Part shown: positions 1,579 to 43,113 of the stretch, piece after piece
How positions within the stretch are numbered: position 1 is the stretch's first letter
Layout of the letters: every line of letters starts with the position of its first letter
DNA from: Pseudochrobactrum kiredjianiae
GTDB lineage: Bacteria; Pseudomonadota; Alphaproteobacteria; Rhizobiales; Rhizobiaceae
Assembly: GCF_030362795.1 (NCBI RefSeq)
Contig: NZ_JAUCBM010000001.1
Coordinates: 1,178,001 to 1,242,000, forward strand
Direction of reading: 5' to 3'
Length of the DNA stretch: 64,000 nt
Translations under genes and position numbers: made by a program
The notes under the pieces: model-generated
The model's input: only the letters and a program-made list of their open reading frames with translations
What the model was told of the DNA's origin: nothing
The model's database searches: none

Positions 1579-1684
1579 ATAGCATTTCCAGCAAAAGTGC
1601 GAAGCGGTTTTGCGTCGGATAATGCGTAAAAACAAACAGTTACAGCGGTTCCAGCGATTCAATCTGAACTGGAACCGTTGTAAC
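1579..1684 (+). repeat. Dispersed palindromic intergenic repeat, copy R1 (106 nt)
   Basis: It begins with TAGCATTTCC, carries a GGATAATGCG core, and ends in a hairpin whose arms (GTTACAGCGGTTCCA at 1639 and TGGAACCGTTGTAAC ending 1684) match at 14 of 15 positions. The layout is shared with the copies at 14854-14999 (opposite strand) and 30280-30388. Length and palindromic design resemble Bru-RS elements of Brucella; membership is inference. Confidence 0.75.
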
Positions 1685-1889
1685 AGGGAACGCACAGTGT
1701 TTTGACACCGTGCAAAAACAGCAGTCGGGGCAAGACGATAACCATTCTGCGAGCGTTTCGCAGGCGATCTTTTGTTGTCGTCCGGTTTGCACAAAACTGC
1801 ATGAAATCAAAGAAGTGAGAGTAACCGGCCTGCGTCATGCAGGAGGGAATCTAGTCTCATCAAAACAAAATACCAAAGGATGTATACCA

Positions 1890-2975
1890 ATGGATTTGAA
1901 TATTCAGAACGTCATCAAGCAATATGGCTCCGTCAAAGCTCTCGATAATGTCTCTCTGAATATTCCGCATGGTTCTCTGGTGTGTTTTTTAGGGCCTTCC
2001 GGCTGCGGAAAAACAACCTTGCTGCGTGCCGTTGCAGGGCTTGAGGATATCGATTCCGGCAAGATTATGCTGGGTGATGCTGATCTGTCGCATACGCCTG
2101 CGCGTTCACGTAATTTCGGCGTTGTATTTCAGTCTTACTCGCTGTTTCCGCATATGACGGCTGCGCGTAATATCGCCTATGGGCTGGAATGCCGGAGCTG
2201 GACAAAAGCGCAGATTGCGACACGCGTGCGTGAAATGCTGGATTTGGTACATCTGGACAGTCAGGCAGAAAAATTACCCGCCCAAATGTCCGGTGGTCAG
2301 CAGCAGCGTATTGCGATTGCCCGCGCATTGGCTCCTAATCCTTCACTCCTTTTGCTGGATGAGCCGCTCTCTGCGCTGGATGCGAAAGTGCGTGAGGAGC
2401 TTCGTAATGAAATCCGTGCGCTGCAAAAGCGCGTCGGCATTACCACAATCATGGTGACACACGATCAGGAAGAAGCATTGGCAATGGCCGATGTGATTGT
2501 GGTGATGAAGGATGGTCATATTGAACAGACCGGCACACCACAGATGCTGTACCAGCAACCGCAGACCAGCTTTGTGGCCGACTTTATCGGTCGTATGAAT
2601 ATTTTAACTCTGGATAAAGCAACGGAGGATAAGGCAACAGGCAATGATCTGCATTTTGCTGATAAAATCCTGAAACTGGATCATAGCAATAGTGGTCATA
2701 CAGCGCCGGTCAGCAAGGTCGGAATACGGCCGGAATCCATCAATCTGTTGCCAGCAGCGCAAGCCGTTGCAGATGATAATCATTTTCCGGCGATAATCCG
2801 CAGTCAGATTTATCTGGGGCACATATCGCGGCTGGAAGTGGTGCCGGATAAGAGACCGGATATTAAAATCAGTGTGGAAATGCATGGAGCCGCAAATAAA
2901 ACTGGTGTGTTGCCGCAGACTGGCGATGCGGTAACCGTGCATCTGCCTGCTGATGCCTTGCGGGTGCTGTCATGA
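1890..2975 (+). CDS. ABC transporter ATP-binding protein (2-aminoethylphosphonate/iron type)
   Basis: Cytoplasmic ATPase of 361 aa that powers the importer. The chosen ATG has AAAGGA nine bases upstream and starts directly with the domain (MDLNIQNVIKQYGS). The open frame extends 60 codons further up, but that part covers noncoding sequence. Visible motifs are Walker A GPSGCGKTTL, the Q-loop at VVFQSYSLFP, the signature MSGGQQQR, Walker B LLLLDEP and the switch histidine in MVTHDQEEA. A C-terminal TOBE-like regulatory domain follows from about residue 240, as in the PotA/FbpC/PhnT group. The stop overlaps the permease start by 4 bp (ATGA), indicating coupling. Confidence 0.9.
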   Translation: MDLNIQNVIKQYGSVKALDNVSLNIPHGSLVCFLGPSGCGKTTLLRAVAGLEDIDSGKIMLGDADLSHTPARSRNFGVVFQSYSLFPHMTAARNIAYGLECRSWTKAQIATRVREMLDLVHLDSQAEKLPAQMSGGQQQRIAIARALAPNPSLLLLDEPLSALDAKVREELRNEIRALQKRVGITTIMVTHDQEEALAMADVIVVMKDGHIEQTGTPQMLYQQPQTSFVADFIGRMNILTLDKATEDKATGNDLHFADKILKLDHSNSGHTAPVSKVGIRPESINLLPAAQAVADDNHFPAIIRSQIYLGHISRLEVVPDKRPDIKISVEMHGAANKTGVLPQTGDAVTVHLPADALRVLS

Positions 2976-4666
2976 GTAGCGCCGAGTTATCCGTTTCTAC
3001 GACCACCGGCGCCGGTCTGAAGCGCGGCTTATTCAGCGATAATTTCATTTCATGGGCAGTAACGCTTGGTGTTACTGCGCTGATCCTGATCTTTCTGGTT
3101 ATGCCGCTTTGGGCTATTCTGGTGCTTGGCTTCAGCACGCCGGCTGGTTTTGGCCTCGGCAACTTTATCAGCACATTCACGGCAGCCCGTTTTTGGACGC
3201 TGGTGCTGAACAGTTTAGGTATGGCACTGACCTGTACGATCCTTGTGACCAGTATGGCTTATGCCTATGCCTATACGCTGCAACGGGCGCATGTGCCGTT
3301 CAAATCCATGCTGCGCATGGCAGCGCTGATACCGCTTTTCGCGCCGTCACTGGTGCAGGCGCAGGGGCTGGTTTTGCTGCTCGGGCGCAATGGTATCCTC
3401 AATCGCTGGATGAGGATGGATATTGATATTTATGGCTTCTGGGGTGTGGTGATTGCCAATGCGCTTTATGCTTTCCCTTATGCCTTTCTGATCCTTTCGG
3501 CAGCTCTAGCGGTAAGTGATGCGCGTCTGCATGAGAGTGCGGAAGTGCTGGGGGCGGGGCCTTGGCGTATTTTCCGCACCCAGACATTGCCTGCCACACG
3601 CTATGGTCTGGCGGCAGCCTGTTTCGTGGTGTTCAATTTGGTGCTGACAGATTTCGGTAATCCGATGGTCATTGGCGGCGACTTCAACGTATTGGCGACT
3701 GAGGTTTACAATCAGGTTATCGGGCAGGCACAGTTTGGCCTTGGTGCGGTGATCGGGATCGTGTTGCTGCTACCGGCAATCTTTGCCAAGATCGTCGAGA
3801 AACGCCTGACCAAGCAGCAACAGGCATTGCTCACTTCGCAGGCGCGGCCGATGGTTGTGCGGCCATCGCGCAAGCGCGATCTGCTTTTGAGCATCTATGC
3901 CTATGTTATTATGGCATTGATCCTGAGTGTTATTCTGGTTGTGGTTCTGGCAAGTTTCGTTAAGCTCTGGCCTTATAATATGAGCTTTACGCTACAGCAT
4001 TATCATTTTGATGTGCAGAACGGCACCGCGCCTTTATGGAATAGTGTGAAGATCAGTCTGGCAACGGCCGTGCTGGGTGTGGCGATTGCTGGTATGACAG
4101 CAATTGCGGTACAGAAATTCAAAAATCCGCTGACCGGCCCTCTGGCATTTCTCGCTATTCTGCCTTCCGCAGTGCCGGGCATGGTGTTGGGGCTTGGCTA
4201 TGTACTGGCCTTCAATAATCCGTCCAATCCGCTGCATTTTCTCTATGGCAGCTTTGCGCTGATTATCATTCTCAGTGTCTATTATAATCATGCGCATGCG
4301 TTTTTGATTTCCTCGACCAGTCTGAAACAGATCAGCGGTTCTTTTGATGAGGCATCAACCATGCTGGGCGGCAGTGTGCTAACCACATTGCGCAAAGTGA
4401 CCTTGCCTTTGCTCTGGCCGACATTACTGGGCGTAGGCGTGTTGTTCTTCATGCGCACTATGGTATCGCTGTCGGCAGTGATCTTTCTCACCACGCCGTC
4501 AACGCAGGTTGCTTCGATCTCGGTGCTGCAATTATCTGATCGCGGTGCAGTTAATCAGGCGGCAGCATTCTCCGTGTGTATTATGCTGATTGTGATCGCA
4601 GCTCTTGTGATCGTGCGCGGTATTCTCTGGGCATTCGGTGCCAAACACGTGACGCTGATCCGTTAA
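2972..4666 (+). CDS. Fused ABC transporter permease (2-aminoethylphosphonate/iron type)
   Basis: Inner-membrane permease of 564 aa with two permease halves in one chain, as in FbpB-type proteins and those annotated as 2-aminoethylphosphonate permeases. About 12 hydrophobic segments are visible. Each half carries a coupling-helix region (around SAEVLGAGPWRIFRTQTLP in the first half and EASTMLGGSVLTTLRKVTLP in the second), which contact the ATPase. The start overlaps the ATPase stop by 4 bp. A strong bidirectional terminator follows, so the operon comprises these three genes. Substrate is uncertain, as for the binding protein. Confidence 0.88.
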   Translation: MSSAELSVSTTTGAGLKRGLFSDNFISWAVTLGVTALILIFLVMPLWAILVLGFSTPAGFGLGNFISTFTAARFWTLVLNSLGMALTCTILVTSMAYAYAYTLQRAHVPFKSMLRMAALIPLFAPSLVQAQGLVLLLGRNGILNRWMRMDIDIYGFWGVVIANALYAFPYAFLILSAALAVSDARLHESAEVLGAGPWRIFRTQTLPATRYGLAAACFVVFNLVLTDFGNPMVIGGDFNVLATEVYNQVIGQAQFGLGAVIGIVLLLPAIFAKIVEKRLTKQQQALLTSQARPMVVRPSRKRDLLLSIYAYVIMALILSVILVVVLASFVKLWPYNMSFTLQHYHFDVQNGTAPLWNSVKISLATAVLGVAIAGMTAIAVQKFKNPLTGPLAFLAILPSAVPGMVLGLGYVLAFNNPSNPLHFLYGSFALIIILSVYYNHAHAFLISSTSLKQISGSFDEASTMLGGSVLTTLRKVTLPLLWPTLLGVGVLFFMRTMVSLSAVIFLTTPSTQVASISVLQLSDRGAVNQAAAFSVCIMLIVIAALVIVRGILWAFGAKHVTLIR

Positions 4667-4680
4667 AGCAAGAGATAGTA

Positions 4681-4717
4681 AAAAGCCCGCCTCAGTGATG
4701 AGGCGGGCTTTTTTTAA
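4681..4717. terminator. Bidirectional terminator between permease and aminotransferase
   Basis: AAAGCCCGCCTCA and TGAGGCGGGCTTT form a long stem with a small loop, with A-run on the left and T-run on the right. It serves both convergent genes. Confidence 0.9.
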
Positions 4718-4731
4718 TTCAGTGCAACCAA

Positions 4732-5919
4732 TCAGGCCGCTTTTTCTAAAGTTATGCGCTGGGCAAGCCGCACCATACCGGCGCAGGCATCATCAATCTG
4801 ATGATCTGCAACGCTGAGGCTGAGACGCAGGAAGCCGACGAGATTGCTGCCAAAGGAATCTCCGGGCATCGTGGCGATTTTTTCTTCTTCCAGCAGGCGC
4901 ATGGCGAAGTCTGCACCGGTCAGACCAGTGGCACGAATATCAACCAGAATGAACATACCTGCTTGCGGGATTTTGCAGGCAATTCCAGTCTGACCATCCA
5001 GCCGCTCGGATATCATTTGCGCACGGCGATAGAAGTTCTCAAGCATCTGCTTGGCGGCCGTTGCAGGACGGTTCAGCGCATAGGCTGTCATATCAGCGAT
5101 AAATGGCTGCACACCAAACAACAGATGCTCTGACAAAGGCAGCAGCCGCTCGGTAAATTCTTCCGGTCCGATGCACCAGCCACTGCGGAAACCCGGAGCC
5201 GAATGGGATTTGGAGATAGAGGCAACCACAACAGTACGGTCACGCAGTTCGCTTAAGTCGAGCGGGGAGGAGAACTCGCCGTTGAACACCAGCAGCTCAT
5301 AGACCTCATCGGAAATAATCCAGAGATTATGCTTGATGCAGACCTCGCCGATGGCCGCGATTTCTTCACGGCTCAGCATGGCACCGGTCGGATTATGCGG
5401 GCTGTTGAGGAGCAACACACGCGAGCGTGGTGTAATTGCTTTTTCCAGATCGGCAGCCTGAAGGCGGAAGCCGTTTTTCTCATGAACCGGCACATAGACC
5501 GGTGTGGCGCCGGTTGCTTTAATCACGCCTTCATAAGTGGCATAGCAAGGATTTGTGGTGATAACTTCATCGCCTTCCTCAGCCAAGCCGAACATGGCAA
5601 TGGCCAGCGCACTCTGGGTGCCGGGGAAGCAAAGAATCTGCTTCTGGCTGATCGCGCGGCCGGTGCGCTTGGAATACTTGTCAGACAATGCGGCAAGGAT
5701 TGAAGGCTCACCGCGACCGCCGGTGTAGCGGGTGCGGCCGGCGCGCATAGAGCGTGCGGCTTCATCAATCATATCTGCCGGGGTCGGAATATCCGGCTCG
5801 CCGATGGTCAGCTCGATAATTTCTTCGCCAGCGGCTTTCATTTCGCGGGCGCGCATATGGACAGCCCATTTATGTGAACCTTGACTGCTCAGACGCTCGG
5901 TAATTCGTGCGTAACGCAT
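4732..5919 (-). CDS. Class I/II pyridoxal-phosphate aminotransferase
   Basis: Cytoplasmic PLP enzyme of 395 aa with aspartate-aminotransferase fold type I. Family features are the TIGEPDIPTP substrate-binding start, SPHNPTGAML, the ISDEVYE segment binding the pyridine nitrogen, and the Schiff-base lysine in SISKSHSAPGFRSGW, with the substrate-carboxylate arginine near the C-terminus (GFLRLSL). The start is the ATG preceded by GGAGGAG; ten extra in-frame codons lie further up. It is convergent with the transporter operon, so a metabolic link is possible but not shown. It is not a class V enzyme like PhnW, so I would not call it an aminoethylphosphonate transaminase. Amino-acid specificity cannot be read from sequence. 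Confidence 0.87.
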   Translation of the reverse strand: MRYARITERLSSQGSHKWAVHMRAREMKAAGEEIIELTIGEPDIPTPADMIDEAARSMRAGRTRYTGGRGEPSILAALSDKYSKRTGRAISQKQILCFPGTQSALAIAMFGLAEEGDEVITTNPCYATYEGVIKATGATPVYVPVHEKNGFRLQAADLEKAITPRSRVLLLNSPHNPTGAMLSREEIAAIGEVCIKHNLWIISDEVYELLVFNGEFSSPLDLSELRDRTVVVASISKSHSAPGFRSGWCIGPEEFTERLLPLSEHLLFGVQPFIADMTAYALNRPATAAKQMLENFYRRAQMISERLDGQTGIACKIPQAGMFILVDIRATGLTGADFAMRLLEEEKIATMPGDSFGSNLVGFLRLSLSVADHQIDDACAGMVRLAQRITLEKAA

Positions 5920-5964
5920 CTTGAGCGCTCCTCCGTATTTTTTATTCATGCTTGCTGCATCTTG

Positions 5965-6067
5965 TAGAGCATAATTTCTTAAACTTGGACTGGTTAAGTG
6001 AAATTATGCTCTAATTTTAAAGTGTTAGAGCGACCTTTATGTGCCAAGTCCGGCACACGGCGCTCTA
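5965..6067 (+). repeat. Dispersed palindromic intergenic repeat, copy R2 (103 nt)
   Basis: It contains two hairpins. The first has perfect 13-bp arms (TAGAGCATAATTT at 5965 and AAATTATGCTCTA ending 6013). The second runs from TAGAGCG at 6026 to CGCTCTA at 6067, with an inner GTGCC/GGCAC stem. The second half matches the copy at 43045-43113 on the opposite strand, with compensating changes in the inner stem. It occupies most of the 340-nt gap upstream of the aminotransferase, where no gene is seen. Confidence 0.8.
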
Positions 6068-6260
6068 GTAATTCATGCGTTGTATCGCATGAACCGAAGA
6101 TAAGACCAGTGTTGTTTCTGCATAATGTCAGAAAATTTTACAAATAATGGAGAGGAATAACGTCTTACATTATAGCATGTTGAGATGTTCAGGCTTGTCA
6201 TTGGCGGACAGAGTTTATAACCATCCATAATAATTCTTTGATCTGTTCCGTGAGGCTTTT

Positions 6261-6503
6261 ATGACCAATACAAATTTGACGCTTTTTATCTGTGATCTGC
6301 TCAGTGCCGCGGGTTCAGTCACGGTGCTGATCGGCTTGCTGATTGTGCTGTTTTCGACATCGCTGGAAAGCAATAGCGAACAGAGCTCAGGTAAAAATTA
6401 TATTGTCAAAGCGACAAAACATTTCAGAACCGGTCTGGTTCTTGCCATTCTCGGCTTTTTGCTGCTGTCGATGTCGTCTTCCTTCGAGCTGATGATTTAC
6501 TAA
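6261..6503 (+). CDS. Small membrane protein of unknown function
   Basis: I do not recognise this 80-aa protein. It has two clear hydrophobic segments (about residues 8-32 and 57-76) joined by a polar loop with the sequence SNSEQSSGKNY, so it is probably a two-helix inner-membrane protein. A GAGG sits before the ATG. The next gene begins 47 nt downstream on the same strand with a good ribosome site, so the two likely form an operon. Base composition is like that of its neighbours. Confidence 0.55.
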   Translation: MTNTNLTLFICDLLSAAGSVTVLIGLLIVLFSTSLESNSEQSSGKNYIVKATKHFRTGLVLAILGFLLLSMSSSFELMIY

Positions 6504-6550
6504 GCCGTTTCTGCGATTGAGATGCGCATACTGATAAAGGGAGGATTGTG

Positions 6551-7153
6551 ATGGCCGTTGATAGTCTTGTTAGCCAGACCGATATGTTCTCTCACATGCG
6601 CATCATCAATGGCATGGGCATTAGCCTGTGCCTGTCGCGGCTGTTGATTTTTGTTTCCAGATTTATTCAGCATCCGTCAAAGAACAAAATATCCTATATC
6701 CACTCCGGCTGGATGCTCATTGTATTTTTATGGATTATCCAGTTCTGGTGGGATTATCTGTTCGAGAGCAGTGGCAAAACCTACGATATCTATCTTTATG
6801 TGTTAGAGCTTTTCTACGTTTTTGGCCTGTTTTTCATCTGTGTTACCTTAACGCCGGATGATGTTAAGGAATACGGAGACTATGAGAGCTATTTCTTTTC
6901 GAGGAAGAAATGGCTGTTCTCACTTTTCATTTTTATTAATTTTGTACAGAGCATAGAGGGGATCAGAGAAGCTTATCTGAAGAGCGATTTCAGCGATATG
7001 AAACTTGAGCTCTGGCTGTTGCTTTCATCAACCATTGTTATTCTGGTTGCTATGAATATTAAACGCAAACGGTTTCAATATTATATGATTGGCTTACTGA
7101 TCCTTTTAATCCTGCTGGATTTTTTTGTTCTGACATATCTGATGCCAGACTGA
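6551..7153 (+). CDS. Multispanning membrane protein of unknown function
   Basis: This 200-aa protein is unrecognised. It has about six hydrophobic segments, rich in Phe, Trp and Tyr, separated by short charged loops (for example SRKKWLF and NIKRKRFQYY). The start is the ATG at 6551 with GGGAGGA upstream; an adjacent GTG at 6548 is an alternative. It probably shares a transcript with the two-helix protein upstream. The size and the aromatic helices suggest a sensor or channel-like membrane protein, but nothing specific can be assigned. Confidence 0.6.
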   Translation: MAVDSLVSQTDMFSHMRIINGMGISLCLSRLLIFVSRFIQHPSKNKISYIHSGWMLIVFLWIIQFWWDYLFESSGKTYDIYLYVLELFYVFGLFFICVTLTPDDVKEYGDYESYFFSRKKWLFSLFIFINFVQSIEGIREAYLKSDFSDMKLELWLLLSSTIVILVAMNIKRKRFQYYMIGLLILLILLDFFVLTYLMPD

Positions 7154-7288
7154 CTGCGTGATGCTACACGCTGATATCGTCGGATAGTCTGGTTTTTGTG
7201 TGTTTCATAAATTTGATTCACAAGCGTTAAGTCATTGTCATGTCCACCCTCTATTGCGGAACCAGTTTTTCAACAAACAGGATCTGCA

Positions 7289-8587
7289 ATGTTCAGAAAA
7301 ATTTCAATTGCTGCTTTGACACTGACTGTCTCTGCTACATCGTCTATGGCTGCGACCAATATCAGCTGGTGGCATGGTATGGGCGGCGCGAATGCTGAGG
7401 TCATCAACGAGCTTTCAAAGCGCTTTAATGCTTCACAGCAGTCCTGTGCGCTGACACCGGTTTCCAAAGGCTCTTACGAAGAAGCGCTGGCTTCCGGTAT
7501 TGCTGCATTCCGCTCCGGTGAACAGCCGAATATTCTTCAGGTTTTTGATGCCGGTGCGGCCACCATCATCAATGCCAAGGGCGCAACCGTGCCTGCCGAA
7601 GACCTGATCAATAATGCCGGTTATAAATTCGACCGTGAAGCCTTCATTGAAGGTGTGCGCTATTTCTATGCAGCACCGGATGGCAAGTTTGTTGGTATGC
7701 CGTTCAACTCTTCCGCGCCGATCATGTATATCAATACGGAAGCGCTGAAAAAGGCCGGTGTTGAAGCACCGAAAACCTGGGAAGAGTTTGAAGCGATTGC
7801 GCCGAAGCTCAAGGAAGCCGGTTATATCCCGCTCACCGCTTCACAGCTGACATGGCAGTTTACCGAGAATTTCTTCTCCCGCCAGAACATTCAGTTTGCA
7901 ACCAATAATAATGGTTATGACAGCGTTCAGGACACGAAGCTGAATGTCACCGATCCGAACCTCATCATGATGTTCGACAAGCTGAAAAACTGGGCTGATA
8001 ATGGCTATTTCGGCTTCTACGGTGCGGGTTGGGCAGACAATCAGAAACCTTTCGATGAAGGTAAAGTCGCGTTGTGGATCGGTTCTTCCGGTTCTTTCGG
8101 TGGTCTGCAGAAAACTGCAAAGATGGAATTTTCCGCCGACTTCCTGCCTTATTGGAAAGCCGTTGACGGAGCAGGCACCAATACATTTATCGGTGGTGCG
8201 GCGCTGTTCGCTATGGCCGGTAAGCCGGACGCAGAAAACAAATGCGTGGCTGACTTCTTCCAGTTCCTGACTTCGCCGGAAGTGCAGAAATATTACCATC
8301 AGGCAACTGGCTATGTGGCAATTACCAAAGCTGCCTATGAACTGGCTAAATCTGAAGGCTACTACGAAAAAACACCGGTTGCCGAAGTCGGCATCAAGCA
8401 GCTGATGCTGCCATCGGGTGAATGGTCGAAGGGCTACCGCCTTGGTTTCTACCCGCAGATCCGTACCATTATGGAACGCGAATATAACCGTATTTTCTCC
8501 GGCGAAACCACAGTCAAACAGGCTTTCGAAACCATCGAAAAAGAAGGCAACGACCTGCTGACCCGTTTCGCAAAGACCGCGAACTAA
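7289..8587 (+). CDS. ugpB: sn-Glycerol-3-phosphate ABC transporter substrate-binding protein
   Basis: Periplasmic binding protein of 432 aa, close to the usual 435-440 aa of UgpB. A signal peptide (MFRKISIAALTLTVSATSSMAA) precedes the mature ISWWHGMGG start, and the family-typical NSSAPIMYIN and WADNQKPFDEGK regions follow. The ATG at 7289 starts the signal peptide; codons further up are noncoding. It is first in a ugpB-A-E-C order that matches Brucella and rhizobia. UgpB-type systems import glycerol-3-phosphate and glycerophosphodiesters such as glycerophosphocholine, which would supply phosphate, carbon and perhaps choline for the bet genes at 19-23 kb. I saw no convincing Pho box. Confidence 0.9.
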   Translation: MFRKISIAALTLTVSATSSMAATNISWWHGMGGANAEVINELSKRFNASQQSCALTPVSKGSYEEALASGIAAFRSGEQPNILQVFDAGAATIINAKGATVPAEDLINNAGYKFDREAFIEGVRYFYAAPDGKFVGMPFNSSAPIMYINTEALKKAGVEAPKTWEEFEAIAPKLKEAGYIPLTASQLTWQFTENFFSRQNIQFATNNNGYDSVQDTKLNVTDPNLIMMFDKLKNWADNGYFGFYGAGWADNQKPFDEGKVALWIGSSGSFGGLQKTAKMEFSADFLPYWKAVDGAGTNTFIGGAALFAMAGKPDAENKCVADFFQFLTSPEVQKYYHQATGYVAITKAAYELAKSEGYYEKTPVAEVGIKQLMLPSGEWSKGYRLGFYPQIRTIMEREYNRIFSGETTVKQAFETIEKEGNDLLTRFAKTAN

Positions 8588-8591
8588 CAAC

Positions 8592-8607
8592 TGAGAGACG
8601 TCTCTCA
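8592..8607. promoter_or_regulatory. Perfect 16-bp palindrome between ugpB and ugpA
   Basis: TGAGAGAC is followed directly by its complement GTCTCTCA, so the 16 bp are perfectly symmetric. It lies four bases after the ugpB stop and 27 nt before the ugpA start. It could be a protein-binding site or part of an mRNA-stabilising structure; a loopless stem is a poor hairpin. Confidence 0.4.
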
Positions 8608-8633
8608 ATGTGATAACGGGGTCGGAGCAAACC

Positions 8634-14853: not shown

Positions 14854-14999
14854 TAGAGCGGTTCAATTTAAAAAAATGTTGGAACCGCTCTATGTCTTTG
14901 CTTGTCGCATTGTCTTACGTATCGAAGCGGGTAAAGAAATCAGTCCGGCGAACTGATTTCCCCGCGAAGGCGCTGCGCACTTTTACAGGAAATGCTCTA
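14854..14999 (-). repeat. Dispersed palindromic intergenic repeat, copy R3 (146 nt)
   Basis: In minus orientation it opens with TAGAGCATTTCC and closes with a hairpin whose arms (TAGAGCGGTTC at 14854-14864, GAACCGCTCTA at 14882-14892) are perfectly complementary. It carries an extra inner hairpin, GAAATCAGT with ACTGATTTC near 14936-14960, so it is longer than its relatives R1 and R6. It fills most of the space between the divergent rpoN and kinase genes. Confidence 0.8.
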
Positions 15000-27865: not shown

Positions 27866-27941
27866 TAGAGCGGTTTACATTCATGTTGGATCTCAGTGCT
27901 CGCTCTAACGTTTTAAAATTATGCTCAAGGCAGAGGCTAAA
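27866..27941 (-). repeat. Dispersed palindromic intergenic repeat, copy R5 (partial)
   Basis: TAGAGCGG at 27866 pairs in part with GCTCTA near 27902-27907. After it comes ACGTTTTAAAATTATGCTC, the reverse complement of the spacer and first-hairpin end of copy R2. The distal half of that hairpin is lost, so this copy is truncated. It lies between the divergent small DUF gene and the HerA-like ATPase gene. Confidence 0.7.
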
Positions 27942-30279: not shown

Positions 30280-30388
30280 TAGAGCATTTCACAGTCAAGT
30301 TGGATCAACTTGGACAGTCCGGGATAATGCGACAAAATAAAGAAACTAGAGCGAGCGCCATGATTCAATCTGAACGTAAACCGCTCTA
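30280..30388 (+). repeat. Dispersed palindromic intergenic repeat, copy R6 (109 nt)
   Basis: It opens with TAGAGCATTTC, has CAAGTTGGATCAACTTG as an inner palindrome, then GGATAATGCGACAA and AAACTAGAGCG, and closes with GATTCAATCTGAAC and CCGCTCTA. The order matches R1 and the reverse complement of R3. It sits in the 255-nt gap between the methyltransferase and L,D-transpeptidase genes, which holds no gene. Confidence 0.82.
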
Positions 30389-36497: not shown

Positions 36498-36692
36498 GGT
36501 CGTTTCCTTCACCTGAGAATGAACAGTGGTGAAGCGAAAATTAAGGAGCAAAGCGCCTTTGACAAGAAGGCATGTAAAAACCCGCAAGTTACATCAAGGT
36601 AACCAGTCGTCGGTAAAACGCAGGATTTATCGGGTTTTTAGAAAACCCTGCTTTGTTTCTTTATTTTGAACACAGTGTATAATGCACTGTTT

Positions 36693-37046
36693 TTAGCGTT
36701 TCAGACATTTGGTAGCGCGGGGCAGACCGGCGCTATAGAGGCTTTGCATCGTGTAGAGCCAGCCTTTGCATTCTTCCATAGAGCTGAAACAGCGGTAGCG
36801 GTTGATGGATTCAGGATAGTCACTGCTGACAAAAGCGCTTTCGCCAAATCCCTGAAAAATCCCGACAATGGCACCACTGCCGCGTGGCGGCGGATTGCAA
36901 CGCTGGCCTGCATATTCACTGACATTTTTACGCACGGTTGCTTCTGCTTGCGGTGCCGGTATTGCAAGCAATGCGGCAATACTCAAAGTGCTGAGAGCAG
37001 CCCGCAGAGGCATGGTGAAGCGCGGTTTCGCAGATATAAAGGACAT
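36693..37046 (-). CDS. Secreted protein of unknown function
   Basis: I do not recognise this 117-aa protein. It has an N-terminal basic stretch, a hydrophobic core (LRAALSTLSIAALLAI) and an Ala-rich cleavage site near EATV at residue 37, so it should be exported. The mature part has four Cys (RCN, RCF, EECK and KCLKR), suggesting one or two disulfides. A GGAAGGA site lies eight bases before the ATG. It sits after a terminator and is probably monocistronic. Confidence 0.6.
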   Translation of the reverse strand: MSFISAKPRFTMPLRAALSTLSIAALLAIPAPQAEATVRKNVSEYAGQRCNPPPRGSGAIVGIFQGFGESAFVSSDYPESINRYRCFSSMEECKGWLYTMQSLYSAGLPRATKCLKR

Positions 37047-37065
37047 GACTTAATCCTTCCCTGTT

Positions 37066-37107
37066 GCAAAAGATCAAAGCAGCATCGCTGTCTGCTTTGA
37101 TCTTTAT
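37066..37107 (-). terminator. Terminator of the msrB-ptrB unit
   Basis: AAAGATCAAAGCAG at 37069 pairs with CTGCTTTGATCTTT ending 37105 (14 bp). On the minus strand the T-run follows the stem. It lies about 20 nt past the ptrB stop. Confidence 0.85.
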
Positions 37108-37121
37108 TCTTTATGCGCCTG

Positions 37122-39218
37122 TTACAGCTTTCCTGCAACTTTAAGCGCGAAGGCGTAAATATAGGCGACTTCTTCCAGCTGGGAGAAGCGGCCGGACGCA
37201 CCGCCATGACCGGCATCCATATTGATTTTCAGCAATACAGGATTGTCGCTGGTGGTTTTTTCACGCAGTCTTGCAACCCATTTTGCTGCTTCCCAATAGG
37301 TCACGCGCGGGTCGGTCAGACCTGCGGTTGCCAGTACCGGCGGATAGTTTTTCGCATCCACATTATCGTAAGGCGAATAGGCGGCAATGGTACGGTAGTC
37401 TGTCTCCGATGCAATCGGATTGCCCCATTCCGGCCATTCCGGCGGGGTCAGCGGCAGGCTGTCATCAAGCATGGTGTTGAGCACATCGACAAATGGGACA
37501 TCGGCGATAACGCCGCCAAAGGCTTCCGGTGCCATATTGGTGATGGCACCCATCAGCATGCCACCGGCAGAGCCGCCATGGGCGATAATGCGGTCATGGC
37601 TGGTGAAGCCTTCAGCGACCAGATATTTGGCTGCGGCAATGAAGTCAGTGAAAGTATTGACTTTGTGTTCACGCTTGCCGTTTTCGTACCAGGCGAAACC
37701 TTTGTCTTTGCCGCCGCGAATATGCGCAATGGCATAGATAAATCCGCGATCAACCAGTGACAGGCGAGACGTGGAGAAGCTGGCCGGAATTGTGCTGCCA
37801 TAAGCACCATAGGCATAGAGCAAAGTCGGAGCCGTGCCGCCCAGCGGCGTATCTTTATGCGCTAGAATGGAGACCGGTACGAGTTCACCATCCGCAGCAG
37901 GCGCCAGAATGCGGCGGGTGACATAATCATCAATCACATGACCGCTTGGCACTTCCTGTGTTTTGAGCAGAATGCGCTCACGGCTGGCCATATTATAATC
38001 AAAGAGCTGGCTTGGCGTGGTCATCGATGAATAGGAGAAGCGGATGACGTCCGTATCATATTCAGCACTGCCCTGCAGGCCGAGAGAATAGGCTTCTTCA
38101 TCAAAAGCAATTGCATGTTCCGCACCACTCACACGTTCACGGATGACGATGCGCGGCAGGCCATTATTGCGCTCCAGCCAGACCAGATGATTTTTATAGG
38201 CAGCAATATCCAGAATGATGGTGCCGGATTTCTCGCCGACAACTTCTGTCCAGTTTTGCTTTTGCGGTGCGCTGACCGGTGCAGACATGATTTTGAAATC
38301 TTTGGCACCGTCAATATTGGTCAGAATATAGAAGACATCGCCGCCTTCAGTCAGAGTATATTCAATGCCGGTCTCACGCGCAGCCACAAGCTGCGGCTTT
38401 GTCTGCGGATCATTGGCTGGTATCAGCCAGACTTCTGATGTTTCGTGATCCTGAATATTGATGAAGGCATAGTCGTTCAGCGAACTGCCGGAGACATTCA
38501 TGAAGAAACCGGAGTCTTTTTCTTCATAGATCAATCTATCCTGTGCTTGTTCCGTGCCGACGCGGTGATAGAACAATTTAGCAGGTCGATGATTGTCGTC
38601 CATCTCGATATAGAAAATGCCTTTGCTCTGGGCATCCCAGACAGTGCCGCCAGCAGTCGCTGTCAGGATGTCACTGCGGTCTTCGAGTGAAGTCAGATCG
38701 CGGATTTTAATGTCGTAAAACTCTGAGCCTTTAGTATCTGCAGACCATGCTAGCAGGCTGTGATCCGGCGAATAGTCCAGACCACCAAGGCTGAAATAGG
38801 CGAGGGATGCCGCTTGTTTATCGCCGTCGATCAGAACGGTTTTATCACCGCCATCGCGCGGGGTTCTGAAATATTGCGGATGTTGGCCACCGGTCACATA
38901 GGAAACGCCATAGGCATAAGCACCGTCTTTAACCGGAACGCTGGAGTCGTCTTCCTTAATGCGGCCTTTCATCTCTGCGAACAGTTTCTGTTGCAGGTCT
39001 TTGGTATCGGCCATCAAGGTTGACTGATATGTATTTTCCGCTTTCAGATGATTGAGGATTTGCGCATCAAGCAGAGACGGATCACGCAGAACATCCTGCC
39101 AGTTTTCTGCGCGTAGCCAGTGATACTCATCATTGCGTGTAATACCATGGCGTGTGTCGCTGTAAGGCTTTTTCTCTGGAGCAGGAGCGGTCTGTTGGAC
39201 GAAAGAATGCTGGTTCAT
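37122..39218 (-). CDS. ptrB: Oligopeptidase B
   Basis: Serine peptidase of the S9 family, 698 aa from the ATG at 39218 (E. coli PtrB is 686), cleaving after basic residues in short peptides. It has the N-terminal beta-propeller (through about residue 410) and the C-terminal alpha/beta hydrolase domain with the nucleophile in HGGSAGGMLMG and the catalytic His in DAGHGGASGR. An ATG at 39275 overlaps the msrB stop by 4 bp (ATGA) and would add 19 mostly hydrophobic residues, possibly a weak export signal. That overlap argues for translational coupling, so the true start is open. It follows msrB on one transcript. Confidence 0.92.
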   Translation of the reverse strand: MNQHSFVQQTAPAPEKKPYSDTRHGITRNDEYHWLRAENWQDVLRDPSLLDAQILNHLKAENTYQSTLMADTKDLQQKLFAEMKGRIKEDDSSVPVKDGAYAYGVSYVTGGQHPQYFRTPRDGGDKTVLIDGDKQAASLAYFSLGGLDYSPDHSLLAWSADTKGSEFYDIKIRDLTSLEDRSDILTATAGGTVWDAQSKGIFYIEMDDNHRPAKLFYHRVGTEQAQDRLIYEEKDSGFFMNVSGSSLNDYAFINIQDHETSEVWLIPANDPQTKPQLVAARETGIEYTLTEGGDVFYILTNIDGAKDFKIMSAPVSAPQKQNWTEVVGEKSGTIILDIAAYKNHLVWLERNNGLPRIVIRERVSGAEHAIAFDEEAYSLGLQGSAEYDTDVIRFSYSSMTTPSQLFDYNMASRERILLKTQEVPSGHVIDDYVTRRILAPAADGELVPVSILAHKDTPLGGTAPTLLYAYGAYGSTIPASFSTSRLSLVDRGFIYAIAHIRGGKDKGFAWYENGKREHKVNTFTDFIAAAKYLVAEGFTSHDRIIAHGGSAGGMLMGAITNMAPEAFGGVIADVPFVDVLNTMLDDSLPLTPPEWPEWGNPIASETDYRTIAAYSPYDNVDAKNYPPVLATAGLTDPRVTYWEAAKWVARLREKTTSDNPVLLKINMDAGHGGASGRFSQLEEVAYIYAFALKVAGKL

Positions 39219-39271
39219 ACTATTTCCGGTATTGGTGGTTAACATGAAGATGGCTGAGAAAATGACGCGGA

Positions 39272-39697
39272 TCATGCTTCAGTAAAATAAAGAGCGGTGC
39301 CGTTCATGCAATAACGCAGGCCTGTCGGCGCAGGGCCGTCGGGAAAGACATGGCCAAGATGCGCATCACAATCCGCACAACGGATTTCGGTGCGGCTCAT
39401 GCCATATGAGGTATCCTCAAAAGCATTCACAGCTTCCGGTTCTGCCGGACGAATAAAGCTTGGCCAGCCGGTGCCTGAGTTGAATTTATCATCTGATTTA
39501 TAAAGCAGCCGGTCACAGCAGATACAGTGGTAAGTCCCGTGAAGTTTGAGGTCAAAGTCCGGACTGGAAAATGCGCGTTCTGTGCCATGCTGACGCGTGA
39601 TCTTATATTGCTCCGGCGTGAGTTGCTCGCGCCATTCTGCATCGGTCTTTTGTACTTTTAACGGGCGTTTATGAAGATCTTTGTCGGACAAGGTCAT
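39272..39697 (-). CDS. msrB: Peptide-methionine (R)-S-oxide reductase MsrB
   Basis: Repair enzyme of 141 aa that reduces methionine-R-sulfoxide in proteins. It has the zinc ligands CICC and [10 protein letters not shown], the GTGWPSF substrate loop and the catalytic Cys in [11 protein letters not shown]. The AGGAGA site is three bases before the ATG at 39697; 27 extra codons upstream are rejected. It is first in a unit with ptrB, combining oxidised-protein repair with peptide degradation. Confidence 0.94.
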
Positions 39698-40504
39698 TCT
39701 CCTGTCATTCAGAATGCATCCCTCAGACAGCTTGGCTTTCGGGATAAGAATTAAAACATGTGCGTTGATCTGATCCAATCAGATATGAGCGCGCTGTGCA
39801 GTGCAATTTTTACAATATATGGGGATATTAACTGCTTTTTAAAAGGTGAATATGGCGTTGTGTATTTCAATAAAAGGTTGATTGTTTTTATTAGTTTTGT
39901 CTAATTTTCGTGTTCTGGTCGTTGTTATCGTTACAGATCGGCCGTTATGTTTGGTAATATAGTCTTGTGTGCATGAGGTTTTTCCGGGGAATTGTTGTAT
40001 AAAATATGGTTTTTCATAATTTGCCAGAAAAATGACTTAATATAGAAATAATCATTTTTTTGATAAAGCATCTTATCCCGATGATAGTGTTTTATATCGT
40101 TATATTCGTTGAGTTCTATTGGTTGTTGTTTCAACAGGTGAAGTTCACAATTTTTTGTGAATTTGTTTTCAGGGATTTAAACTGGAACATCATTTACTTT
40201 GTATGTGCGAATGGTGATTTCAAAGTTCAAATCTTTGGAGAAAAATAGAAAAATTTTCTGTTTTAGGCAAATTCACGGATGTTCATTCCTCAAGGGTGTG
40301 AAGGTTGAAATTTTATCAATCAGTCAAAAAGCGTACAAAACTTAACATTATTGTAAAATAAATTGACATTTTGCAATTTTTATAGATATGAGAAGATCAT
40401 TGGGATGGTATGCACATTTTAAACTGGTTGATTGTTGAGCGGGCTGAATTATTATATATATAAAGTGCTTTTCCAATCAGCAATATATAGATGAAGGAAG
40501 TATA
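39698..40504. other. Long AT-rich region upstream of mucR
   Basis: About 800 nt, noticeably richer in A and T than the surrounding sequence, between msrB (minus) and mucR (plus). Many T-runs and a TATATATATA stretch near 40452-40462 are visible. MucR/Ros proteins bind AT-rich promoter sites and repress their own genes, so a regulatory role is likely. Open frames at 40060-40248 (plus) and 39931-40134 (minus) are AT-rich hydrophobic or lysine-rich translations without family resemblance, and I do not call them genes. Confidence 0.6.
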
Positions 40505-40933
40505 ATGGAACATCCAGAGACTGTAGTTTCTGCCGACGAACTACTGCTCAGTCTTACAGCTGATGTTGTCGCTGCTTATGTCAGCAATAACTCCATCCGT
40601 GCGGGCGAGTTGCCAGCGCTGATCGCTGATGTTCATGCCGCTTTTGCGCGTTCCGGTGTTCGTGAAGAAGTTGTCGCAGTTGTTGAGAAGCCAAAACCGG
40701 CTATCAACCCAAAGAAATCAGTACACGACGAGTATATTATTTGCCTTGAAGACGGCAAAAAATTCAAGTCGCTCAAGCGTCACCTGATGACCCATTATAA
40801 CCTGACACCGGAACAGTATCGTGAAAAGTGGGATCTGGATCCTAACTATCCGATGGTTGCTCCAAGCTATGCTGAAGCCCGTTCTCAGCTTGCTAAGAAG
40901 ATGGGTCTGGGTCGTAAGCGTAAAGCTGCCTGA
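40505..40933 (+). CDS. mucR: MucR/Ros-family transcriptional regulator
   Basis: Zinc-finger regulator of 142 aa, the usual size. The Ros-type finger is in [20 protein letters not shown]: Cys, then Asp, then His-x4-His, in the C-x2-D-x9-H-x4-H arrangement typical of rhizobial and Brucella MucR. The [17 protein letters not shown] and GLGRKRK tail follow. MucR acts as a global, H-NS-like regulator of exopolysaccharide, motility and cell-cycle genes in this order. A GAAGGAAG ribosome site precedes the ATG. A good terminator follows, so it is monocistronic. Confidence 0.95.
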
Positions 40934-40956
40934 TCAGGACAGTTTCCAGAGACTAT

Positions 40957-40993
40957 ACAAAAGCAGCGGTGGAATAATACCGCTGCTTTTTTA
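40957..40993 (+). terminator. Terminator of mucR
   Basis: AAAAGCAGCGGT pairs with ACCGCTGCTTTT over a 7-nt loop, followed by T-rich sequence. Confidence 0.88.
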
Positions 40994-41054
40994 TGCTTAA
41001 GTGATGATTTTTCTGTTGTTAGAGTGCAATTAACTGAAGTCTCTCAAAGATATT

Positions 41055-41378
41055 TTATAAACTCTGGTTGTGAACATCATTATGCGCGTCAGTCTCTTTC
41101 GCAATCATGTTTAAGATGCGTATTTGTACTTGTTTTAGAGCGATATGACGGTTGATGTCATAGCTCCAGTGTTTGTTCAGCCCCTTTAATCTTTCTCTTT
41201 TAATCAACCGGTTCAGCTTGGCCACAACGCTGGCCTTTTTCTCCGTGGATGACGTTGTGATTTGGCGGAGATCAATGCCGCAGCTCATTTGTAAAGCAAA
41301 TGATTGTGCGGCTTGCAGCGCATCCTCTTTACGATTTTCAATGAAAACCTGTCTGTCATGTTGCAAATTTTCTGACAT
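41055..41378 (-). CDS. Small charged protein of unknown function
   Basis: Unrecognised protein of 107 aa, rich in Lys, Arg, Glu and His, with no signal or membrane segment. The C-terminal half (IKRERLKGLNKHWSYDINRHI) looks like a conserved basic helical region. A GAGGCAG site is upstream of the ATG. Its position next to mucR and the DnaA-like gene may be meaningful, since all are small DNA-related or basic proteins. An overlapping plus-strand frame (41173-41535) is much poorer in composition and is rejected. Confidence 0.5.
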   Translation of the reverse strand: MSENLQHDRQVFIENRKEDALQAAQSFALQMSCGIDLRQITTSSTEKKASVVAKLNRLIKRERLKGLNKHWSYDINRHIALKQVQIRILNMIAKETDAHNDVHNQSL

Positions 41379-41660
41379 GATCTGCCTCTTTTTGAATGAG
41401 GAAGATGATATGTTGAGAAATAAGAGCGGGGATAAGCAGCTTTTTGTAATGTTTACTTTAATTATTGTATTAAATAATTTTTTTATAAGTAGTAATATGA
41501 GTTATGAAATTTATTTATCGCAATTAATAAGTTAAATTTATTTTGAATATGATAATTTAAAATTGTTTTTTTGATGTATTGTTTATATTTAAAATAAGTG
41601 GTCAAAATTTATCCCCGTATAAGATTTTTACCTTATCCATATGTCATCTACGGAGGGCAT

Positions 41661-42212
41661 ATGTTGAACAATTTTCCTGATTTTTTGTCTGGCCACACCG
41701 ATACGCTCATCGTTTTACGTAGCTTCCCGACTGCCGCACTAAAACCGTTTCGTCCAAAAGAGCAGGACGGCAGTCCAATAAACGAAGCAAGCCGAAAAAT
41801 ACGCATGACAGATGATGCGCTTTATCTCGCTGAACTTTTGCACAAAAATCACAAGTTTCAGCGAAAGCGTAGCAATGATGAGCGTCAGCAACATGCATGG
41901 AACCTATGCGGTGCATTGCTGTCTTTATTATCGGTTTTCTTTCAGGTGACATTAAAGGAATTGCGTAGTGCAGAGCGGGGCAATAACCATGTTGCCCGCA
42001 TCCGGCAATTCGGCATGTATATCGCCCATACAATGTTCGGGCTTTCTATGTCTGAAGTGGCTTATGCTTTTTGCCGCGAGAGAACGACGGTCAAACACGC
42101 CTGTCATTTGATTGAAGATATGCGGGAAAATGAAAAATTCGACAGTAATGTCAGCGACTTTGAATATCTGGTTCGGTCTCTTTATCCGGGCATCGGGAGT
42201 GTAGCAGAATGA
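41661..42212 (+). CDS. DnaA domain IV-like helix-turn-helix protein
   Basis: Protein of 183 aa. Residues about 93-157 resemble the DnaA C-terminal DNA-binding domain: RIRQFGMYIAHTMFGLSMSEVAYAF followed by CRERTTVKHACHLIEDMRE, which keeps the basic-loop plus helix-turn-helix pattern including the RTTVKHA box like the RDHTTVLHA signature. No AAA+ ATPase domain exists, so it is not DnaA itself. The ATG at 41661 follows GGAGGG; 21 codons further up are rejected. Its stop overlaps the next start by 4 bp (ATGA), so the two proteins are co-translated. Role inferred: a sequence-specific regulator, possibly competing at DnaA boxes. Confidence 0.78.
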   Translation: MLNNFPDFLSGHTDTLIVLRSFPTAALKPFRPKEQDGSPINEASRKIRMTDDALYLAELLHKNHKFQRKRSNDERQQHAWNLCGALLSLLSVFFQVTLKELRSAERGNNHVARIRQFGMYIAHTMFGLSMSEVAYAFCRERTTVKHACHLIEDMRENEKFDSNVSDFEYLVRSLYPGIGSVAE

Positions 42213-43000
42213 TCAAGCGTAATTGCCTTCTGACTATGGCCGATAAACAACCCGCTTTGAGAGTATTGCGCTTTTTACACAAAGCCTCAGCTATGCTGGA
42301 AGAAAGTACGGATTGTGATCGCTGGTTACTCGTGAGTGGGGAGAGCGGCAGTGTCTCTTGTGACAGGCATTTACTTGATGCGCTGAACAATGCCGCCCTG
42401 ATTAAGATACAAAATGGCAAGGCTAATTTATCAGTGGCGGGGCGTGAACTGCTGCAAGAGTTTAAACAACCCGCGAATTTAACTCATACCAATGTTAAAA
42501 ATAGTAGCTTTGGCCTCATGGTTAATCATGCTGAGTCTCCGCTGGGATTGCTTTATCGGAAGAACAAGCAAACCGGACAGCGGTTTTTGAGTGATGAGGA
42601 ATTTCAGGCAGGAGAGCGTTTGCGCGCTGATTTCACACGGGGCAACATGATGCCGCGCATTACGGCGAATTGGGAGGCGGTCGTTACGAAACGCGCACGT
42701 GGTGAGCGCGGAGCGCAGGCTGATCTGAGTGACCATGCGCTGGACTGTCGGGACAGAGTTGAGAAAGCTTTGAGAGATGTAGGGCCGGAATTATCCGGTG
42801 TGCTGCTGGATATATGCTGTTTTCTGAAAGGCTTGGAGCTGGTGGAGCGGGAGCGGTGCTGGCCGGTACGCTCAGCAAAAATGATGCTGAAAACGGGTTT
42901 AAGCATTTTGCATCGTCATTATACGGCTGACAGTGATTCCGGCAAAACAGAAGTGCCCGTGTATCATTGGGGAGCGCCGGATTTCCGGCCATCATTATAA
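42209..43000 (+). CDS. DUF6456 family protein
   Basis: Protein of 263 aa. The C-terminal part carries the block ESPLGLLYRKNK, then FLSDEEFQAGERLRADFTRG and ITANWEAVV, which I recognise as the DUF6456 region of alphaproteobacterial hypothetical proteins. The N-terminal ~90 residues look like a winged-helix fold (ALRVLRFLHKASAMLEES, then a short beta-rich stretch). The start overlaps the DnaA-IV-like gene by 4 bp. The pairing suggests a two-protein regulatory module. No enzymatic motif is visible. The function is unknown. Confidence 0.72.
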   Translation: MIKRNCLLTMADKQPALRVLRFLHKASAMLEESTDCDRWLLVSGESGSVSCDRHLLDALNNAALIKIQNGKANLSVAGRELLQEFKQPANLTHTNVKNSSFGLMVNHAESPLGLLYRKNKQTGQRFLSDEEFQAGERLRADFTRGNMMPRITANWEAVVTKRARGERGAQADLSDHALDCRDRVEKALRDVGPELSGVLLDICCFLKGLELVERERCWPVRSAKMMLKTGLSILHRHYTADSDSGKTEVPVYHWGAPDFRPSL

Positions 43001-43044
43001 TTGATCCTGCGCCTTCTATTGAAGACGCAGGATGAAACATAGCT

Positions 43045-43113
43045 TAGAGCGTCGTGCGCCCTCTTGGGCGCACAAAGGTCGCTCTAACACTTTATATTTA
43101 CAGCGTAATTTTA
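43045..43113 (-). repeat. Dispersed palindromic intergenic repeat, copy R7 (partial)
   Basis: TAGAGCGTCG at 43045 and GGTCGCTCTA near 43087 close a hairpin with an inner GTGCGCCC/GGGCGCAC stem. On the minus strand it reads AAAGTGTTAGAGCGACCTTT, identical to part of copy R2, while the inner stem differs by paired changes. It sits just past the sufE stop and may double as a terminator. Confidence 0.75.

What the first reader, a model, noticed from the sequence alone, without database searches (positions are those of the whole stretch)
1579..43113. Covarying family of structured palindromic intergenic repeats
At least six copies or fragments (1579-1684, 5965-6067, 14854-14999, 27866-27941, 30280-30388, 43045-43113, plus a fragment near 52704) share TAGAGC...GCTCTA borders and common spacers in either orientation. 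R2 and R7 share about 20 identical bases, but their inner hairpins differ by paired substitutions (GTGCC/GGCAC versus GTGCGCCC/GGGCGCAC). Paired changes indicate selection on folded structure, whether as RNA or as cruciform DNA. The roughly 105-nt length recalls Bru-RS of Brucella. All copies are intergenic, some directly after stop codons or between divergent genes.
Basis: partly seen in the sequence, partly recalled or inferred. Interest (0 to 1): 0.72.

Follow-up and report, generated by a model that had tools for sequence, protein, structure and literature searches.

The report
Tiny jumping palindromes with methylation sites
The repeated palindromes in this soil bacterium look like miniature transposons derived from an IS630-type jumping gene, and jumping genes of that lineage carry the cell-cycle methylation mark GANTC at a fixed spot in the end next to their transposase gene, which suggests that their movement may be tied to the host's replication cycle.

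Summary
The host is a Pseudochrobactrum (Brucellaceae). The bordered pattern occurs 238 times in its genome against 6 for the control. Full copies, about 105 bp, are two palindromic arms joined by a linker. They are mobile: 38 of 61 indels of 30-400 bp against a sister species are this family, and 15 of 23 near full-length ones have the length of a 2-bp, mostly TA, target duplication. The genome's one DDE_3/IS630 element has the same TAGAGC...GCTCTA ends. Three of four subfamilies match IS630 ends beyond shuffles; AD does not. So these are IS630-type MITEs resembling Bru-RS and CIR repeats. Paired changes sit mainly at two base pairs without G-U bias; RNA selection is not supported. New: in 45 of 49 distinct left ends of intact-length IS, GANTC (CcrM site) starts exactly at nucleotide 23, in 0 of 48 right ends. 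A second site follows in 47 of 51 IS and the IS body avoids it; four Azotobacter copies have none in nt 1-60. Proposed, unproven: CcrM methylation gates transposition.

The parts
1578..1682 (+). Class B element (arm 1, linker, 42-nt arm 2); TA at 1578-1579 and 1681-1682; site empty in two relatives
1656..1660 (+). GATTC (CcrM site) at nt 23-27 read from the outer right end of the 1578-1682 element
5965..6067 (+). Class AD element (49-nt arm D, 12-nt linker, 42-nt arm A); shared with two relatives, absent in three others that keep one TA
14854..14999 (-). Class B element with an extra inner hairpin (146 nt), at the 5' end of a sigma-54 (rpoN) gene on the minus strand
27866..27907 (+). Class C arm (42 nt, GGATC at nt 23), followed to about 27926 by a deletion remnant
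30280..30388 (+). Class C element; class C outer ends resemble the IS630 right end; absent at this site in P. asaccharolyticum, where the empty-site dinucleotide reads GA
30362..30366 (+). GATTC (CcrM site) at nt 23-27 read from the outer right end of the 30280-30388 element
43045..43150 (-). Class AD element, longer than reported; holds the stop codon (43132-43134) of a SufE gene
52704..52728 (+). Short AD-like fragment
   Evidence: not recovered by profile search

Best explanation
The repeats are MITEs: non-autonomous elements of about 105 bp (TA-[arm]-[linker]-[42-nt arm]-TA) moved in trans by transposases of an alphaproteobacterial IS630 lineage (Tc1/mariner superfamily, DDE, TA target) whose autonomous members are about 1.05 kb and end in TAGAGC...GCTCTA. 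Shown: the same borders and, for three of four subfamilies, matching inner end sequence; 2-bp target duplications and precise presence/absence between species; nested insertion; one such IS630 copy in this genome. Inferred: that the transposase acts on the MITEs, that several IS630 subtypes bred the several MITE subfamilies, and that palindromy is kept by the element's life cycle, not by an RNA role.
For: Empty sites with a single TA at two loci. 38 of 61 indels of 30-400 bp against P. asaccharolyticum, found without use of the repeat's sequence, are this family. Of 23 near full-length ones 15 have an insertion length equal to the TA-to-TA distance, and the empty dinucleotide is TA in 10 of those 15 (ties between candidate end positions were broken towards that length, which favours the result). 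An AD element sits inside a B element at TA. The one DDE_3 match among 7 genus genomes lies in a TA-flanked 1050-bp element with TAGAGCGTTTCCC ends; its DDE ORF passes the IS630 model's cut-off (129.6 over 100 bits). End matches at positions 7-30 against 51 IS, 2000 shuffles each: class C both ends 18/24 to IS right ends (no shuffle reached it), class C' left = an IS left end 18/24 (none), right = an IS right end 17/24 (p 0.0005), class B one end 16/24 (p 0.001) (consensus of 6, 7 and 27 copies). A TIR search without prescribed letters found a pair in 20 of 50 loci; 19 have TAGAGC or TAAAGC borders, one (L169) was a wrong pair.
Against: Class AD (58 of 160 profile hits; B with Bx 69) matches no IS end in the library (p 0.13 and 0.10), nor does the second end of class B (p 0.10). 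Six other genus genomes hold 34-134 pattern copies but no DDE_3 match, so the source there is lost or unseen. In 8 of 23 indels the length is off by 1 to 11, and a letter-exact TA test gives only 10 of 38 family indels (7 with TA in the empty site) against 3 of 23 other indels (2). No movement was observed.
Confidence: 0.85

Rival explanations
1. The repeats are conserved RNA elements (3' UTR hairpins, terminators or small RNAs) kept by selection on the RNA fold.
For: Strong folds for four of six window copies; enrichment near stop codons (57 of 146 flanking stops within 20 nt) and between convergent genes (34 of 139 against 15% of intergenic bases); both-side changes above shuffles in the A arms.
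Against: No G-U preference in the A arms (20 G-T, 25 A-C), none in the B arms without the consensus G-T pair (9 and 14; 24 and 15 with it). Copies are polymorphic between sister species, and no Rfam family matches in the window.
Confidence: 0.07
2. GANTC in the IS ends is a transposase contact or part of a promoter hexamer, with no role for methylation.
For: Right ends keep G at 23 in 46 of 48 and TC at 26-27 in 37 of 48, so part of the motif is probably a protein contact. Other sites have a recurrent context (CTGATTCAA, GTGATTCAA, GGGATTCCC) and a 23-nt spacing in 20 pairs, which could be promoter geometry. Methylorubrum AM1 has no GANTC in its left end.
Against: Left ends fix A24 and T26 while base 25 varies (GAATC 32, GAGTC 9, GATTC 4 of 49), as GANTC specificity predicts. 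GANTC is about twenty-fold below expectation in the IS body (0.17 against 3.49 per kb). Four Azotobacter copies keep TAGAGC but have no GANTC in nt 1-60.
Confidence: 0.35
3. The repeats are REPIN-like elements moved by a Y1 (RAYT) transposase, or MITEs of an IS5/IS427-type IS such as IS711.
For: High copy number and palindromy (REPIN); IS711 also duplicates TA (PMC2266754, passages).
Against: A 2-bp target duplication points to a DDE enzyme. DDE_Tnp_1 gives seven matches in 3 of 7 genus genomes; five of these seven loci (L149-L152, L154) were examined and none has a TIR pair bounded by TAGAGC. Y1 transposases were not searched.
Confidence: 0.04

Closest known systems
CIR (Caulobacter CcrM-associated intergenic repeats; Chen and Shapiro 2003, not held; known here through the review PMC2229807, section 7 and passages)
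   Same: About 110 bp, two palindromic arms plus linker, TA at termini, intergenic, GANTC at the loop of one arm, alphaproteobacterial.
   Different: The review's table gives CIR no terminal inverted repeat, and its text leaves mobility and the GANTC role open. Here the elements have TAGAGC...GCTCTA borders, 2-bp target duplications and an IS630 lineage with the same ends. Published CIR sequences were not compared.
Bru-RS1/Bru-RS2 of Brucella (Halling and Bricker 1994, not read; seen through passages of PMC2267715, PMC2266754 and PMC10800456)
   Same: 103-106 bp, palindromic, intergenic, same bacterial family; PMC2267715 lists 222(69) members in B. melitensis against 35-40 known before.
   Different: No parent IS is named for them in the passages seen; IS711 is said to prefer them as targets. 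No Brucella sequence was compared here.
RUP of Streptococcus pneumoniae with IS630-Spn1 (review PMC2229807, passages)
   Same: 107-bp intergenic MITE, TA target, proposed to be moved in trans by an IS630 transposase with matching ends.
   Different: The review reports no functional DNA motif in RUP; the two-arm plus linker build is not described for it.
Dam-regulated IS10/IS50 (PMC10073500, table and references in passages; details recalled)
   Same: An adenine-methylation site in an IS, used to couple transposition to replication.
   Different: Other methylase (CcrM, GANTC), other IS family (IS630), other bacterial class. That review's table gives ctrA-GcrA for CcrM and 'Unknown yet' in the next column, where Dam has IS10 transposition. 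For the IS630 lineage the link is a hypothesis.
IS630-like elements of Sinorhizobium meliloti (a copy annotated ISRm10-1, L311; a pSymA copy of strain 1021, L222)
   Same: TAGAGC ends, GANTC at 23 and further GANTC in the left end.
   Different: Autonomous elements, not the MITEs; ends differ in positions 7-22.

Membership tests
IS630-type MITE | Terminal sequence shared with an IS630 element | tested here: met
   Classes C, C' and one end of B, p at most 0.001; both AD ends and the other B end not significant
IS630-type MITE | TA target-site duplication | tested here: met
   15 of 23 near full-length indels by length, TA in 10 of these 15; two sites aligned; letter-exact test 10 of 38
IS630-type MITE | Short and numerous | tested here: met
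   57 of 64 full-length copies are 100-110 nt; 160 elements in 1.024 Mb
IS630-type MITE | Mobilised by the IS630 transposase | not testable with these tools
   Needs a transposition assay
IS630 family (the parent IS) | IS630 transposase model / DDE_3 domain, TA-flanked TIRs, about 1 kb | tested here: met
   NF033545 129.6 bits over cut-off 100, PF13358 1.1e-28, 1050 bp
CIR | About 110 bp, two arms and linker, intergenic | tested here: met
CIR | GANTC in one arm | tested here: inconclusive
   In part of the copies only: at nt 23 in AD 12 of 24 and B 7 of 27 (one end each), fewer in C and C'; two of six window copies
CIR | No terminal inverted repeat (table of PMC2229807) | tested here: not met
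   TAGAGC...GCTCTA borders; so not filed as CIR, only compared with it
CIR | Sequence identity with published CIR1-CIR4 | not testable with these tools
   Chen and Shapiro 2003 not held
Bru-RS | 103-106 bp palindromic intergenic repeat | tested here: met
Bru-RS | Sequence homology to Brucella Bru-RS1/2 | not tested
   No Brucella sequence was fetched. Class B DNA matches 351 plasmid records, mostly Rhizobium, with 3 Ochrobactrum; the class C and AD queries matched only 4 Pseudochrobactrum records each
REPIN | Linked RAYT (Y1) transposase | not tested
   Y1 genes were not searched; the 2-bp duplication speaks against this kind
Rfam RNA family | Covariance-model match | tested here: not met
   0 matches at gathering scores in the window

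The most novel reading that the evidence does not exclude
An IS630 lineage spread through the Alphaproteobacteria is wired to the CcrM cell-cycle methylase: GANTC sites at nt 23 and again upstream of the transposase start let transposase transcription and/or left-end use respond to the hemimethylated state left by the replication fork, possibly through GcrA, so that transposition is timed to replication. CIR- and Bru-RS-like MITEs inherited the site, which would explain why such repeats carry GANTC. It would be the CcrM counterpart of Dam control of IS10/IS50.
Probability: 0.5. Interest if true: 0.85.

Novelty: new variant of a known kind. Interest (0 to 1): 0.7.

Why it matters
It gives a candidate parent and an insertion mechanism for a class of alphaproteobacterial repeats known since the 1990s; for CIR-type repeats a review called the mechanism of mobility unresolved. 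It also turns the unexplained GANTC of such repeats into a testable hypothesis: that the cell-cycle methylase CcrM times transposition. The IS left ends become a natural comparative panel of possible CcrM-responsive promoters and transposon ends.

Tried and rejected
RNA fold as the driver: tested by G-T versus A-C mismatches, no bias. IS5-type transposases as parents: five of seven DDE_Tnp_1 loci examined, no matching TIR pair. The backward-read control is unfair in GC-rich family members (control exceeds observed in many), so no family-wide abundance claim rests on it. The letter-exact TA test of the indels (10 of 38 family, 3 of 23 other) was followed by the length-based test because single substitutions in the TA had broken the first; both are reported. 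CIR and RIME source papers are not held. The right end's lack of GANTC has a partial coding explanation: its motif overlaps the last codons of the transposase (..GYDPI in this IS).

Rows left out before counts; of 60 loci 10 had no tblastn hit; of the other 50, 35 gave a left end (33 distinct, 31 with GANTC at 23) and 44 a right end (36 distinct, 0); of 42 loci 34 gave a left end, 19 of them with GANTC at 23; the 15 without are six distant IS (L225-L228, L256, L257), Azotobacter L220, and eight others (L218, L221, L229, L233, L245, L250, L251, L254), of which several are probably degenerate or wrongly assigned ends, not checked one by one. The 45 of 49 is after keeping IS of 1030-1065 bp with both ends and at least 44% identity; L192 (judged a wrong left end) is counted there as a miss and dropped from then on. 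Roseomonas and Roseibium gave no left end; Dysgonomonadaceae gave none.

Against the GANTC reading: Methylorubrum AM1 (L221) has no GANTC in its first 80 nt, Paracoccus pantotrophus (L218) has GGGTC at 23 though GANTC at 36 and 59, an O. quorumnocens copy (L229) has an altered left end without it, and two Azotobacter salinestris copies have GATTC at nt 23 of the RIGHT end (not in the 48 right ends). That Azotobacter lacks CcrM is recalled, not searched. Its four copies have three distinct left ends and are few independent events. In 3 of 16 high-copy genomes no unit has in-register GANTC. IS loci were the best matches to this genome's transposase, and 28 plasmid records (from searches matching 952, 985 and 1003 records) were picked by me for breadth, not at random.
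Full report
WHAT IS THERE. The window lies in a Pseudochrobactrum genome (the five best named loci for one ABC permease, 94-98% amino-acid identity, include P. asaccharolyticum, P. saccharolyticum and a Pseudochrobactrum sp.). Every copy in the finding is present. The bordered pattern TAGAGC-N25-55-GCTCTA occurs 238 times in the genome against 6 for the pattern read backwards, in 7 of 7 genomes of the genus (34-238) and in 227 of 297 of the family, where the control is not GC-fair. Profiles built from copies in this genome find 160 elements in 1.024 Mb, none in the reversed sequence; 140 of 160 overlap ORFs by less than 20%, against 10.6% of random 100-mers.

ANATOMY. A full element is two palindromic arms joined by a short linker. 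One arm is usually 42 nt with TAGAGC at one border and GCTCTA at the other; 57 of 64 full-length copies are 100-110 nt. Four classes occur: B (1578-1682, and 14854-14999 with an extra inner hairpin), C (30280-30388, and one arm at 27866), C' (not complete in the window) and AD (5965-6067 and 43045-43150). Four of six window copies fold strongly as single-stranded DNA (z -7.0, -6.3, -3.8, -6.9); the two class C copies do not (+0.2, -1.5).

IT MOVES. At 5965 three relatives lack the element and keep one TA; at 1578 two relatives lack it and keep one TA (the other three are too diverged there to align). Against P. asaccharolyticum about 280 kb of colinear sequence gave 61 indels of 30-400 bp; 38 are this family. 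Of 23 near full-length ones 15 have exactly the length expected for a 2-bp target duplication, and in 10 of these 15 the empty site reads TA (position ties were resolved towards that length). One AD element is inserted inside a B element. A stricter letter-exact test found TA at both borders in 10 of 38 family indels (7 with TA in the empty site) and in 3 of 23 others (2).

THE PARENT. The genome has one DDE_3 (IS630-type) match; the other six genus genomes have none at E 1e-3. It lies in a 1050-bp element flanked by TA with ends TAGAGCGTTTCCC; its DDE ORF passes the IS630 model's cut-off. Relatives of this transposase occur in 162 of 297 family genomes and, at E 1e-20, in 35 of 398 genomes drawn across the phylum, where matches from other classes are at most 39% identical; on plasmids Azotobacter has one at 56%. 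A search for TA-flanked inverted repeats without prescribed letters found a pair in 20 of 50 loci, 19 of them bordered by TAGAGC or TAAAGC and one (L169) a wrong pair. Comparing MITE end consensuses with 51 IS (positions 7-30, 2000 shuffles): C both ends 18/24, C' left end with an IS left end 18/24 and right end with an IS right end 17/24, B one end 16/24, all p at most 0.001; B second end and both AD ends not significant (C and C' consensuses rest on 6 and 7 copies). The elements are therefore best read as IS630-type MITEs; the AD parent is still to be found.

NOT AN RNA STORY. In 50 distinct A arms the both-side changes (49 cells, shuffle maximum 32) sit mainly at two pairs that split the copies into two forms. 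G-T mismatches (20) do not exceed A-C mismatches (25). For 19 distinct B arms they are 24 and 15, or 9 and 14 without the one pair that is G-T in consensus, and both-side changes (15) only equal the shuffle maximum; outer C pairs give 3 and 1. A fold that mattered as RNA should favour G-U.

THE GANTC PATTERN. Counting from the T of the border TA, 45 of 49 distinct left ends (transposase-start side) of intact-length IS have GANTC starting exactly at nt 23; 0 of 48 right ends do. The four exceptions are one probable wrong assignment (L192), Azotobacter (L220), Methylorubrum AM1 (L221) and an O. quorumnocens copy with an altered left end (L229). Before the length filter the counts are 31 of 33 distinct left ends and 19 of 34, the misses being listed in Tried and rejected. 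In 22 clusters at 75% nucleotide identity 19 have it in all members; positions 14-22 carry at most 0.38 bits, positions 23, 24, 26 and 27 carry 1.63 and position 25 carries 0.81. Of 51 distinct alphaproteobacterial IS, 49 have the site at 23 and 47 another at 28-75; from nt 80 to 1000 the density is 0.17 per kb against 3.49 expected from composition. In the first 60 nt of 50 distinct left ends there are 88 GANTC against a shuffle mean of 10.8 (maximum 21); of seven other split palindromes of the same form TCNGA reaches 45 and the rest at most 12. After noting the prediction I fetched more named plasmid loci. In the first batch Azospirillum, M. tardum and Lichenicola have GANTC at 23, Roseomonas and Roseibium gave no left end; in the second all five with a recognisable left end had it at 23 and another at 54-58, one gave none. 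Paracoccus pantotrophus, fetched earlier, has GGGTC at 23 and GANTC at 36 and 59. The four Azotobacter copies keep TAGAGC but have no GANTC in nt 1-60, nor do four distant IS630 (two gammaproteobacterial, one cyanobacterial, one from Bacteroidota); two A. salinestris right ends read GATTC at 23. The right-end motif overlaps transposase codons, so its usual lack of GANTC is partly a coding matter.

THE MITES KEEP THE SITE, IN PART. In-register GANTC units occur in 13 of 16 high-copy genomes, for example 34 in G193 (59 units), 20 in G022 (31), 16 in G127 (25) and 11 in this genome (182), with 0 for the backward control in all 16; G118, G159 and G087 have none. In the window the elements at 1578 and 30280 have it at nt 23 from their outer right end, the other four do not have GANTC. 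GANTC is scarce in this genome (1208 sites against 3984 expected in 1.024 Mb); 55 lie in the elements, which are 1.4% of the sequence. The host has CcrM (best solved relative 6pbd, 3.1e-162; CcrM model 1.8e-192, 638.8 bits, below its cut-off of 830).

LITERATURE. A review dated December 2007 (PMC2229807, section 7 and passages read) describes CIR repeats of about 110 bp with two arms, a linker and GANTC; it gives them no TIR and leaves mobility and the GANTC role open. Searches: IS630 with MITE and Brucella gave 3 papers, GANTC with IS630 gave 4, GANTC with transposase and CcrM gave 17, IS630 with miniature inverted-repeat and Rhizobium gave 0, intergenic repeat with GANTC and CcrM gave 0. Passages of five of these papers were opened (PMC2229807, PMC11711589, PMC13076061, PMC10073500, PMC4287350); the rest were seen as listings only. 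None of what was seen links CcrM or GANTC to IS630 or names IS630 as parent of these repeats. A 2023 review (PMC10073500, passages) lists IS10 transposition for Dam and 'Unknown yet' in the same column for CcrM. GcrA of Caulobacter, Brucella abortus and S. meliloti binds GANTC-methylated DNA (PMC3667746, passages). Only open-licence papers are held, so absence here is not proof of absence in print.

MECHANISM, WITH STATUS. Shown: presence/absence between species, 2-bp duplications, shared ends for three classes, placement of the GANTC site. Inferred: the transposase acts in trans on MITEs. Hypothesis (about 0.5): the methylation state of the left-end GANTC sites sets transposase expression or end use, timing transposition to replication.

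Noticed in passing
window 43616-43723: A second TA-bounded palindromic family of about 104 bp (TACCAAAACCC...TCTTGGTA), 7 profile hits in 1.024 Mb; three copies are absent from P. asaccharolyticum. Probably another MITE; parent not sought.
   Followed up: partly
window 43132-43605 (-): The SufE gene ends inside a MITE arm, which holds its stop codon.
   Followed up: partly
L030: The record titled 'Bacillus subtilis strain SK6B4' encodes the window's permease at 97% identity and is colinear with the window at about 89% DNA identity; it looks mislabelled.
   Followed up: no
L148:979-2028: The IS630 transposase is in two overlapping frames with a run of seven A in the overlap, as in IS that use programmed frameshifting (the parallel is recalled).
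   Followed up: no
window 14854-14999; G001:C1:337140: Some class B elements carry an extra inner hairpin (GAAATCAGTTCGCCGGACTGATTTC) as a recurrent module.
   Followed up: no
window 240-287: Weak class C' profile hit (E 4e-4), perhaps an old fragment.
   Followed up: no
   Followed up: no
G000:C1:973223: A 54-bp tandem unit differs by two copies from the sister species.
   Followed up: no
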